Shown here piece by piece: positions 2,606 through 53,098 of a stretch of DNA of 64,000 bases (within the stretch, counting starts at the first letter, position 1; each line of letters opens with the position of its first letter). The notes under the pieces were generated by a model. It worked only from the letters and a program-made list of their open reading frames with translations. It was not told where the DNA came from and searched no databases. Location of the stretch: NCBI GenBank assembly GCA_030531645.1, contig JAUNNB010000001.1:62001-126000 (forward strand). The letters run 5' to 3'. The position numbers and the translations under genes are program-made. This DNA is from Candidatus Saccharimonadota bacterium (GTDB lineage: Bacteria > Patescibacteriota > Saccharimonadia > Saccharimonadales > Saccharimonadaceae).

Positions 2606-3184
2606 ATGTCAAAGAAAACTTTAATCGCAGCCCTCGGTGTAGCAGCTGGTCTCGGTGTCGCCGCTATGCCTGCCGCAGGCGTATTCGCTGATCCTGCAAC
2701 TGATGATTCTACAGAGGAAATCAAGGTTATTATTAATGAAGCTCTTGAAATCAACTGTGTTACTGAAACCACTGCTGGTGCCAGCGAAGTTACTATGGCA
2801 AGTGGTCAGTCTAATAGTGACTTGTCAACCAAATGTACAGTTGTGACAAACGCCGCTAAGGGTTTCACCCTTTCCGTTAAAGATGTTGACAGTGAACTCG
2901 CTCTTACAAATAGTGGTACTCGTCCACAGGATAGAATCGAAGCTGTTGCTAATGCTGCTACGACCGAAGGTTGGAGCCTTACTAATACTGACGGCACTGG
3001 TGCTGGTGTTGTTACTAGCCCATTTGCAATTAAGGCTACTGACCAGATTATTCACTACCAGGCAGACCCAACCGATGATCAGGGTAAATCTGTAACCGTC
3101 AACTATACTTTCAATACTCTTGCTGACCAAGCTGCAGGTACTTACACTGACGAAATCGTCTACACTGCTACTGCTAACGTCTAA
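2606..3184 (+). CDS. Secreted WxL-like beta-sandwich surface protein
   Basis: 192 residues with a clear signal peptide: KK, a hydrophobic core, and a likely cleavage at about residue 28 (AGVFA-DP). The mature part is Thr/Ser/Ala-rich and beta-strand-like, with two cysteines that could form a disulfide. It has one GWSL (W-x-L) tripeptide and ends in GTYTDEIVYTATANV, which resembles the last strand of Firmicutes WxL domains, although the distal Trp is replaced by Tyr. No membrane anchor is present. The next gene encodes a DUF916-like membrane-anchored protein, the usual partner of WxL proteins. The match to the WxL family is by pattern only, and it could be another secreted Ig-like protein. Confidence 0.55.
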   Translation: MSKKTLIAALGVAAGLGVAAMPAAGVFADPATDDSTEEIKVIINEALEINCVTETTAGASEVTMASGQSNSDLSTKCTVVTNAAKGFTLSVKDVDSELALTNSGTRPQDRIEAVANAATTEGWSLTNTDGTGAGVVTSPFAIKATDQIIHYQADPTDDQGKSVTVNYTFNTLADQAAGTYTDEIVYTATANV

Positions 3185-3201
3185 TCTTAGCTGAAAGTGA
3201 A

Positions 3202-3230
3202 AAAATCCCCCGGTTGTCGGGGGATTTTTG
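3202..3230 (+). terminator. Rho-independent terminator
   Basis: Stem aatccccc/gggggatt with loop ggttgtc, then TTTTTG, between the secreted protein and the DUF916-like gene. Confidence 0.85.
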
Positions 3231-3242
3231 ATAATTTAAGTC

Positions 3243-3271
3243 TTGTAAAAACGCTTAAGCTCGTGTATGAT
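3243..3271 (+). promoter_or_regulatory. Promoter of the DUF916-like gene
   Basis: TTGTAA (3243-3248), 17-bp spacer, TATGAT (3266-3271), then a short leader with acataacaaggagg. The same leader sequence precedes the paralogue at 49906. Confidence 0.6.
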
Positions 3272-3293
3272 AGGTACATAACAAGGAGGCATT

Positions 3294-4238
3294 TTGAAAA
3301 TAAAACATTTAGCTACTAAAATTTTGTGTGGTATTTTGCTTGTTGCGGGTATCGCCGTTTCTGGTATCTTCACTGGATTTGCACAGGCTGCCAGTACTGC
3401 AGTACTTAGCGTTGAAGGCGAGTTGATTAATCGTATTGGCGAAATGCAACCAGGCAAATCATATGATGGTGTTATTAAAGTCAGAAATAAGAGTAACATG
3501 GAGGCAGATGTCAAATTCTATGCTACCGGTTATTACGTAGAGGGCGAGAGTTATGCTCCTGTTTACCCAGAAGAAGGTGACCGCGCTCTTATTATGAAGT
3601 GGGTAGAATTCGAAGAAGAAAAAGCAAAAATTGCTCCAGGTGAAGCCGTAGAAGTTAAGTATACTATTTCCGTTCCAAAAGATGCTCCGGCTGGTGGTCA
3701 GTATGCCACTATTATGGCTGAAACTGAGCCTGACGAAAGTGGGACTATTCAGGCTAATGCTCGTGTAGGTCAAATCGTTATTTCGTATGTTTCTGGTGAA
3801 ACCACTAAGTGCGGGAAGATTCAGAGTACTAGCATCGCCGGCTTCCTCGTCAACCCTCCAATCACCGCCTCTGCTATCGTTGAGAACTGTGGTAACGTTG
3901 ATCTCGATGCTGAATATATCTTGAAAGTTTACCCGCTCTTCTCTGATGAAGAAATTTATACTACGGAAGAAAACCCAGAAACCAAGATTATTCTTCCAGA
4001 CACTCGCCGTATGCACTCCGTATCCTGGGCTGCTGCTCCATCCATCGGTATCTTCCGTGCTGAGGAAATCGTCCGCATTAATGGCGAAGAAACTGTTGCT
4101 TCCAAGTTCATCGTCATTCTTCCAATCTGGCTCATCGTCCTCATTCTCGTTGCAATCGCTGCAATCGTCTTCCGCGTCATAACTATTAGCAAGACCCGCA
4201 AGCAGGCAACTAACCGCCCAGCTCCAAAGAAGAAATAA
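3294..4238 (+). CDS. DUF916/WxL-interacting-like membrane-anchored surface protein
   Basis: 314 residues starting at a TTG codon 4 nt after AAGGAGGC. Layout: signal peptide (about 1-32), an N-terminal beta domain with the phrase TISVPKDAPAGGQYATIMAE, a second beta domain with cysteines near positions 166 and 200, a transmembrane helix at about 277-300, and a Lys/Arg-rich cytoplasmic tail. This order (signal peptide, two extracellular domains, TM, basic tail) is that of Firmicutes DUF916+DUF3324 WxL-interacting proteins, which bind peptidoglycan and WxL partners. Paralogues lie at 49906 and 50853. The TTG start is conserved in the 49906 copy. Family membership is inferred from architecture and local motifs. 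Confidence 0.6.
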   Translation: MKIKHLATKILCGILLVAGIAVSGIFTGFAQAASTAVLSVEGELINRIGEMQPGKSYDGVIKVRNKSNMEADVKFYATGYYVEGESYAPVYPEEGDRALIMKWVEFEEEKAKIAPGEAVEVKYTISVPKDAPAGGQYATIMAETEPDESGTIQANARVGQIVISYVSGETTKCGKIQSTSIAGFLVNPPITASAIVENCGNVDLDAEYILKVYPLFSDEEIYTTEENPETKIILPDTRRMHSVSWAAAPSIGIFRAEEIVRINGEETVASKFIVILPIWLIVLILVAIAAIVFRVITISKTRKQATNRPAPKKK

Positions 4239-4253
4239 TTTCTCACATTCAAA

Positions 4254-4277
4254 AGACGCCCACCCAGGCGTCTTTTT
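4254..4277 (+). terminator. Rho-independent terminator
   Basis: Stem agacgcc/ggcgtct with loop caccca and a T5 run after the DUF916-like gene. Confidence 0.85.
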
Positions 4278-4285
4278 GTGATACG

Positions 4286-4395
4286 AAAAAAGATGCTAAT
4301 GCATCTTTTTAGATGAGGACTCCCGACTTGTGTATCAACCCACTGTCGGCCCTCGCGGACAGGCTCCGTCCGCTATGCTGACCTCTAGCCTATCT
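4286..4395 (-). ncRNA. Candidate structured small RNA (about 110 nt)
   Basis: No protein is encoded here. On the minus strand an extended -10 (TGGTATAAT, 4410-4402) should start transcription near 4395. The RNA would contain hairpin gcggac/gtccgc (4355-4360 with 4368-4373) and hairpin ccgac/gtcgg (4323-4327 with 4345-4349), enclosed by gagg/cctc (4315-4318 with 4382-4385), i.e. a three-way junction. It ends at a terminator stem agatgc/gcatct (4291-4306) plus T run; that stem also has a T run on the plus strand. I see no SRP RNA (GGAAG loop), tmRNA, RNase P or tRNA signature. The identity is unknown. Confidence 0.6.
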
Positions 4396-4430
4396 AATTA
4401 CATTATACCACATCATGCTATAATATGTCT

Positions 4431-5006
4431 ATGGGAATAGAAATCGAAGCAACTTTTACCGGTATAGATAAAGATCTATACCGCGAAAAACTAAAATCCG
4501 TGGGAGCCACACTTAAACAAAAAGAACTCCTAATGCGCCGCGTCGTATTCGATGTTTCAGAACACGAATTTGCTCGCGTCCGCGACGAAGGCAATTGCAT
4601 CACCATGTCTTACAAACACCAAGATTCGCATAGCTTATCTGGTATGCAAGAAGTCTGCGTCAAGGTGGACTCGTATGACGAGGCGATTAATTTTCTCCTT
4701 GCGCTAGGCTTCAAAATTAAGTCCGAGCAAGAAAGCTACAGGGAAGAATGGGAGCTAGATGGCGTAGAAATCACGATTGATACATGGCCATGGCTGGCGC
4801 CATATACCGAGATCGAAGGTCCTAGCGAAGACGCCGTAAAAAGCGTATCTGAGAAATTAGGCTTTAATATGGAAGATGCCATTTATGGTTCAGTCGATGA
4901 TGTCTATATCAAGTATTACAAAACAACCAGCCACGAGGTAAACTTCAGACCGAAGATTCTGTTCTCCGAAGAAGTAGGTTGGGAAGAAAGGAAGGAAAAT
5001 GGGTAA
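4431..5006 (+). CDS. CYTH-domain protein (class IV adenylate cyclase/thiamine-triphosphatase-like)
   Basis: About 191 residues. It opens with GIEIEATFTGID, the ExExK-type N-terminal strand of the CYTH fold with the third charged residue altered (E-x-E-A-T), and contains alternating charged strands (RRVVFDV, FARVRDEG, YREEWELDGVEITID). CYTH enzymes are triphosphate tunnel hydrolases or cyclases that bind metal through these acidic and basic residues. The start at 4431 is chosen because TATAAT (4419-4424) ends 6 nt before it, while an in-frame ATG at 4425 would lie upstream of the expected transcript. It overlaps the next gene by 8 nt, suggesting translational coupling. The substrate cannot be predicted. 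Confidence 0.75.
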   Translation: MGIEIEATFTGIDKDLYREKLKSVGATLKQKELLMRRVVFDVSEHEFARVRDEGNCITMSYKHQDSHSLSGMQEVCVKVDSYDEAINFLLALGFKIKSEQESYREEWELDGVEITIDTWPWLAPYTEIEGPSEDAVKSVSEKLGFNMEDAIYGSVDDVYIKYYKTTSHEVNFRPKILFSEEVGWEERKENG

Positions 5007-52979: not shown

Positions 52980-52988
52980 AGTGTAAGC

Positions 52989-53065
52989 GGGCGGTTAGCT
53001 CAGTTGGCTAGAGCGCGTCTTTGACGTAGACGAGGTCAGAGGTTCGACTCCTCTATCGCCCACCA
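52989..53065 (+). tRNA. tRNA-Val (anticodon GAC)
   Basis: Acceptor GGGCGGT/ATCGCCC, D-arm, anticodon stem GTCT/AGAC with loop TTGACGT, T-arm GAGG-TTCGACT-CCTC, discriminator A and CCA at 53063-53065. Confidence 0.95.
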
Positions 53066-53072
53066 CGAAGAT

Positions 53073-53098
53073 CAACGGATAAAATCCGTTGTTTTTTT
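53073..53098 (+). terminator. Terminator of tRNA-Val
   Basis: caacggat-aaa-atccgttg stem plus T7. Confidence 0.9.

What the first reader, a model, noticed from the sequence alone, without database searches (positions are those of the whole stretch)
4286..4410. Unassigned three-way-junction small RNA on the minus strand
An extended -10, three nested stems and a strong terminator define a ~110-nt RNA with no ORF. The promoter is back-to-back with that of the CYTH gene. It matches none of the universal RNAs I can recognise, so it may be a lineage-specific small RNA.
Basis: partly seen in the sequence, partly recalled or inferred. Interest (0 to 1): 0.65.

Follow-up and report, generated by a model that had tools for sequence, protein, structure and literature searches.

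The report
Orphan small RNA gene in Saccharibacteria
Between two protein genes of a small-genomed bacterium (Saccharibacteria) lies what looks like a complete gene for a 110-letter structured RNA that encodes no protein; it matches no known RNA and no relative, so it is probably a species-specific regulatory RNA of an ordinary kind.

Summary
On the minus strand, 4431-4286, there is an 11/12 sigma-70-type promoter with extended -10 (TAGACA-18-TATAAT), a predicted start at A4395, a compact GC-rich fold, and a 10-bp terminator hairpin with a U tract ending at 4286. The longest start-to-stop frame has 9 codons. My scan of the window for promoter-to-terminator units found three: one inside an ORF, a real tRNA-Val gene, and this one. 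Shuffled windows gave 0.1 units each, none as strong in 30. The fold is stable (z -3.8 with terminator, -2.7 without). P3 is near certain, but the P1/P2 three-way junction holds only about 60-67% of the ensemble; a competing 5' fold takes a third. Rfam has no match. No homologue was found in 174 genomes of the genus, 393 of the order, phages or plasmids, so covariation cannot be tested. No housekeeping RNA fits; SRP RNA is further excluded because sampled relatives show no Ffh M domain. No gene lies downstream in its direction, so it is not a leader or riboswitch. Best reading: a free-standing, fast-evolving orphan sRNA, probably a trans-acting regulator. Transcription is unproven. Its promoter overlaps that of the apparently leaderless CYTH gene, so the two probably compete for polymerase.

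The parts
4426..4431 (-). -35 hexamer TAGACA of the RNA promoter (5/6)
4402..4407 (-). -10 hexamer TATAAT (6/6) with TG extension (TGGTATAAT, 4410-4402)
4286..4395 (-). predicted 110-nt RNA, start at A4395; start inferred from the 5-8 nt spacing between -10 and start codon in apparently leaderless genes of this window and of CYTH orthologues
4309..4397 (-). P1 (TTAGAT/ATCTAA as DNA, at 4397-4392 and 4314-4309; only its inner 4 bp lie within the RNA if it starts at 4395)
   Evidence: pair probability 0.5-0.6
4355..4373 (-). P2 hairpin GCGGAC-GGAGCCT-GTCCGC
   Evidence: pair probability 0.67
4315..4354 (-). P3 hairpin GAGGGCCGAC...GTCGG...TCCTC with terminal loop GGTTGATA
   Evidence: pair probability mostly 0.95-1.0
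4358..4394 (-). competing 5' fold: GATAGGCT (4394-4387) with AGCCTGTC (4365-4358), excludes P1 and P2; its AGGCT/AGCCT part could also form a pseudoknot with the P2 loop
   Evidence: pair probability 0.33; pseudoknot by eye only
4286..4310 (-). intrinsic terminator AAAAAGATGC-ATTA-GCATCTTTTTT
4397..4424 (+). overlapping divergent promoter of the CYTH gene, ATTACA-16-TATAAT, TG extension, 6 nt before ATG 4431 (leaderless)

Best explanation
A free-standing small RNA gene. RNA polymerase starts at about A4395 from an extended -10 promoter, transcribes about 110 nt of structured noncoding RNA and stops at the intrinsic terminator at 4286. The RNA most likely acts in trans, as a base-pairing or protein-binding regulator, with an exposed 5' stretch (AGGCUAGAGGUCAGCAUA in one conformer) and the P3 loop as candidate contact sites. 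Because its promoter overlaps that of the divergent, apparently leaderless CYTH gene, the two transcripts probably compete for polymerase. Shown: the sequence signals, the fold stability, the lack of an ORF, the lack of a downstream gene in the same direction, the lack of known relatives. Inferred: transcription, termination, trans action, promoter competition. About 0.75 for a real, separately transcribed noncoding RNA; about 0.4 for a trans-acting regulator.
For: 11/12 promoter with TG extension. Fold z -3.8 with terminator and -2.7 without. Promoter-to-terminator scan finds this unit and a true tRNA-Val gene as the only two intergenic units in the window; shuffled windows give 0.1 units each and none as strong. 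The predicted start fits the -10 spacing used by leaderless genes of the lineage. No ORF over 9 codons. GC 0.56 against 0.27 and 0.40 in the flanks. The neighbour in its direction of transcription, gene 3294-4238, is convergent, so nothing lies downstream for a leader to control.
Against: No conservation at all in 174 genomes of the genus or 393 of the order; the opposite strand folds nearly as well relative to shuffles (z -2.75); the three-way junction is not clearly the dominant fold; target search among 55 window genes gives nothing beyond shuffles; no transcript data.
Confidence: 0.7

Rival explanations
1. A known housekeeping RNA that has diverged beyond recognition, above all SRP 4.5S RNA, which Rfam does not find in this lineage.
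For: Rfam small and large bacterial SRP RNA models find nothing in the own genome or acceptably in 30 relatives, so a slot for a roughly 100-nt RNA seems open.
Against: The canonical SRP core motif is not in the sequence and not found in the own genome with 3 mismatches. The Ffh M domain is missing in all 10 genomes searched, with 14 of 14 controls positive, and absence of both ffh and ffs is published for the CPR group Parcubacteria (PMC4508563). A housekeeping RNA would be conserved in the genus; this one is not. tmRNA has its own locus elsewhere in the genome.
Confidence: 0.02
2. A cis-regulatory leader (riboswitch, attenuator) or an antisense RNA for a neighbour.
For: Short structured RNA ending in a terminator; two competing 5' folds; the terminator hairpin also reads as one on the + strand behind gene 3294-4238.
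Against: No gene follows on the minus strand: the next gene in that direction is convergent. It does not overlap any ORF of 100 codons or more, and gene 3294-4238 has a terminator of its own at 4251-4278 (sequence).
Confidence: 0.08
3. A byproduct: a promoter and a palindrome-rich spacer between a convergent and a divergent gene, transcribed or not, without function of the RNA itself. At most the overlapping promoter tunes CYTH.
For: No conservation; neighbours CYTH and 3294 are not syntenic in relatives; overlapping divergent promoters.
Against: Promoter, GC-rich structure and terminator occur together, which shuffled sequence does not give; the only other intergenic unit of this design is a real tRNA gene.
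Confidence: 0.15
4. A mobile palindromic repeat element rather than an RNA gene.
For: An 18-20 nt piece of P2 (AGCGGACGGAGCCTGTCC) occurs twice next to a palindromic repeat in one genome of another family of the order (G302).
Against: Single copy in its own genome; the shared piece is at chance level for a search of 393 genomes and lies in a different context.
Confidence: 0.03

Closest known systems
Bacterial intergenic trans-acting sRNAs in general (sigma-70 promoter, 50-250 nt, intrinsic terminator)
   Same: gene layout, size, lack of ORF, narrow phylogenetic range
   Different: no target, chaperone or transcript shown; no relatives, so no family can be named
isrK (RF01394), best Rfam match over the RNA itself on the correct strand
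   Same: terminator-bearing small RNA; overlap 4364-4286
   Different: 14.8 bits against a gathering score of 50, E 0.34: a chance match that rests on the terminator
Bacterial small SRP RNA (RF00169)
   Same: roughly 100-nt stable RNA
   Different: no SRP core motif, no match, no Ffh in the sampled genomes

Membership tests
Free-standing bacterial sRNA | own promoter | tested here: met
   11/12 sigma-70 consensus with extended -10; consensus match only, activity not tested
Free-standing bacterial sRNA | own intrinsic terminator at 50-250 nt | tested here: met
   10-bp stem plus U tract, 110 nt from the predicted start
Free-standing bacterial sRNA | no coding capacity | tested here: met
   longest frame 9 codons
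Free-standing bacterial sRNA | discrete transcript in the cell | not testable with these tools
   needs RNA-seq or Northern blot
Free-standing bacterial sRNA | conserved structure (covariation) | tested here: inconclusive
   no homologues found, hence no alignment
Bacterial SRP RNA | match to RF00169 or RF01854 and the conserved core bound by Ffh | tested here: not met
Bacterial SRP RNA | Ffh partner with M domain in the genome | tested here: not met
   PF02978 absent in 10 of 10 genomes including the own one; 14 of 14 controls positive
tmRNA / tRNA | match to RF00023 or RF00005 or ARAGORN | tested here: not met
   the genome's tmRNA lies elsewhere, on contig C5
6S RNA, RNase P RNA and other Rfam families | gathering-score match | tested here: not met
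   no match in this region to any of 4227 families at gathering scores; only sub-threshold chance matches at E up to 10
Riboswitch or leader | regulated gene downstream in sense | tested here: not met
   next gene in that direction is convergent
tracrRNA | anti-repeat complementary to CRISPR repeats in the genome | tested here: inconclusive
   BLASTN of the RNA in the own genome gives only itself and one 19-nt chance hit; CRISPR loci were not searched directly

The most novel reading that the evidence does not exclude
The RNA is a bistable regulator: P1/P2 and the 5' helix GAUAGGCU/AGCCUGUC exclude each other, and a ligand, protein or target RNA shifts the balance. It would be one of a set of fast-evolving orphan sRNAs by which individual Saccharibacteria species regulate genes although many of their mRNAs appear to lack leaders.
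Probability: 0.1. Interest if true: 0.6.

Novelty: new member of a known kind. Interest (0 to 1): 0.3.

Why it matters
No paper on small RNAs of Saccharibacteria came up in the papers searched. A well-formed orphan sRNA, and two comparable unassigned units at one locus of a relative, suggest that these streamlined genomes keep small regulatory RNAs that turn over quickly between species. As many genes here appear to lack 5' leaders, any base-pairing regulation would have to work differently from the usual blocking of ribosome-binding sites. For this single locus the importance is modest until a transcript is shown.

Tried and rejected
BLASTN in 60 relatives, 174 genus genomes, 393 order genomes, plasmids and phages: only chance hits, many of them visibly inside coding sequence. 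Exact 16- and 18-mers in viral contigs: chance-level hits, no support from the covariance model. Single-sequence covariance model R1 over the genus, over 40 relatives and over 61 loci around CYTH and 3294 homologues: nothing above noise (13.8 bits at best, inside a 202-aa ORF that precedes a probable ribosomal-protein ORF). Synteny: CYTH orthologues found in 39 of 100 genus genomes but not beside 3294-type genes in the loci examined, so no positional homologue. SRP hypothesis: rejected. mRNA target search in the window: not better than shuffled queries.

Full report
SETTING. The window is contig C6 62001-126000 of a 771-kb, 99% complete genome. CYTH relatives from the same genus come from records titled uncultured Candidatus Saccharibacteria: the contigs CAMUBZ010000012.1 (26,632 bp) and CANBER010000015.1 (25,028 bp) have the same lengths as G064:C12 and G121:C15. 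So the organism is a member of Saccharibacteria (inference). The candidate lies between gene 3294-4238 (+; one of three matches to this protein in the genome) and the CYTH-domain gene (4431-5006, +; PF01928, E 7e-8).

OBSERVATION. Reading the minus strand: TAGACA (4431-4426), 18 nt, TATAAT (4407-4402) with TG in front, 11 of 12 consensus positions. The lineage itself gives a ruler for the start. CYTH orthologues across the genus mostly have TATAAT-like boxes about 6-7 nt before the ATG, and 15 of 55 window genes have such a box 5-8 nt before a start codon. Applied here, the RNA starts at about A4395. The terminator is AAAAAGATGC-ATTA-GCATCTTTTTT and ends at 4286, giving 110 nt. There is no ATG frame beyond 2 codons; the longest frame is TTG plus 8 codons.

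CHANCE. A scan for promoter (extended or perfect -10) followed within 50-260 nt by a hairpin terminator finds three units in 64 kb: one inside an ORF, 52986-53097, which is the tRNA-Val gene with its start predicted 3 nt before the tRNA, and 4285-4395. Thirty dinucleotide-shuffled windows give 0.1 +/- 0.4 units each and none as strong. Folding energy: z -3.8 with terminator, -2.7 for the 89-nt core (10 of 1000 shuffles as good), -3.3 for P2+P3 alone. The opposite strand of the core scores z -2.75, so the fold alone does not give the direction; the promoter and terminator do.

FOLD. P3 (4354-4315) is nearly certain. P2 (4373-4355) has probability 0.67, P1 about 0.5-0.6. One third of the ensemble instead pairs GAUAGGCU with AGCCUGUC, which excludes P1 and P2. 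The helix AGGCU/AGCCU could also form a pseudoknot with the P2 loop; this was seen by eye and not tested.

WHAT IT IS NOT. Rfam 15: no gathering-score match in the region; at E up to 10 only chance matches, on the minus strand to isrK, ftsZ-DE and sR33, the first two of which rest on terminator hairpins. SRP RNA: not found in the own genome or at cut-off in any of 30 relatives with RF00169 and RF01854 (the one weak match lies inside a 348-aa ORF); no core motif in the own genome; and the Ffh M domain is missing in all 10 genomes searched, with 14 of 14 controls positive. Lack of both ffh and ffs was published for Parcubacteria (PMC4508563), and absent SRP subunits in many CPR bacteria are mentioned in PMC8080830. 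tmRNA sits on another contig. It is not a leader: the next gene in its direction is convergent. It is not a repeat: single copy.

RELATIVES. None. BLASTN in 174 genus genomes gives one 23-nt match at E 0.006 that falls in the terminator. In 393 order genomes the best match is an 18-nt piece in G302 beside a palindromic repeat. A covariance model of the single sequence finds only itself above noise. Limits: the genome search uses a first look that needs some sequence similarity; the genus is broad (best CYTH orthologue about 60% identical); metagenome collections could not be searched. A homologue with conserved fold and lost sequence could have been missed. Neighbour order is not conserved, so position did not help.

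MECHANISM. Most likely a trans-acting sRNA. The overlapping divergent promoters (minus -10 at 4407-4402, plus -35 at 4397-4402, plus -10 at 4419-4424, minus -35 at 4431-4426) cannot both hold polymerase, so expression of the RNA and of the leaderless CYTH message should be inversely coupled. This follows from the layout and is untested. No target was found among 55 window genes beyond the level of shuffled queries.

VERDICT. A credible but unproven orphan sRNA gene, a new member of a known kind. It deserves an annotation as a candidate ncRNA and a look in transcriptome data.

Noticed in passing
own genome G000 and relatives: No SRP: Ffh M domain (PF02978) absent in 10 of 10 genomes of the order and SRP RNA (RF00169, RF01854) without an acceptable match in 30 genomes, while controls are positive. 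Loss of SRP is published for Parcubacteria (PMC4508563); here it appears in Saccharibacteria. FtsY was not checked.
   Followed up: partly
L035:2633-2750 (+) and L035:2590-2425 (-): Two further structured intergenic units in a relative (G086) near its CYTH gene: a 118-nt unit (promoter 11/12, terminator, fold z -3.5) and a roughly 165-nt unit upstream of a 114-aa ORF (extended -10, fold z -1.9). Rfam has no match to either, even at E 1.
   Followed up: partly
window, many genes; CYTH orthologues L021-L049: Many genes appear leaderless: a TATAAT-like box 5-8 nt before the start codon in 15 of 55 window genes, and before the ATG of many CYTH orthologues in the genus.
   Followed up: partly
window 2606-4238 and G000:C6:111924-112814: Surface-protein-like gene 3294 belongs to a paralogous family, mostly 2-6 matches per genome in 170 of 174 genomes, often with a second copy and a 2606-type gene alongside.
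   Followed up: no
L118:1501-1518, L119:1501-1520 (G302): A palindromic repeat (CTGAACTTGATTCAGG type) preceded by AGCGGACGGAGCCTGTCC, which is identical to part of P2 of the RNA.
   Followed up: partly
L094:1289-1349, L103:10283-10343: Viral contigs with a 15-bp tandem repeat that contains the 16-mer GAGGTCAGCATAGCGG; probably unrelated.
   Followed up: no
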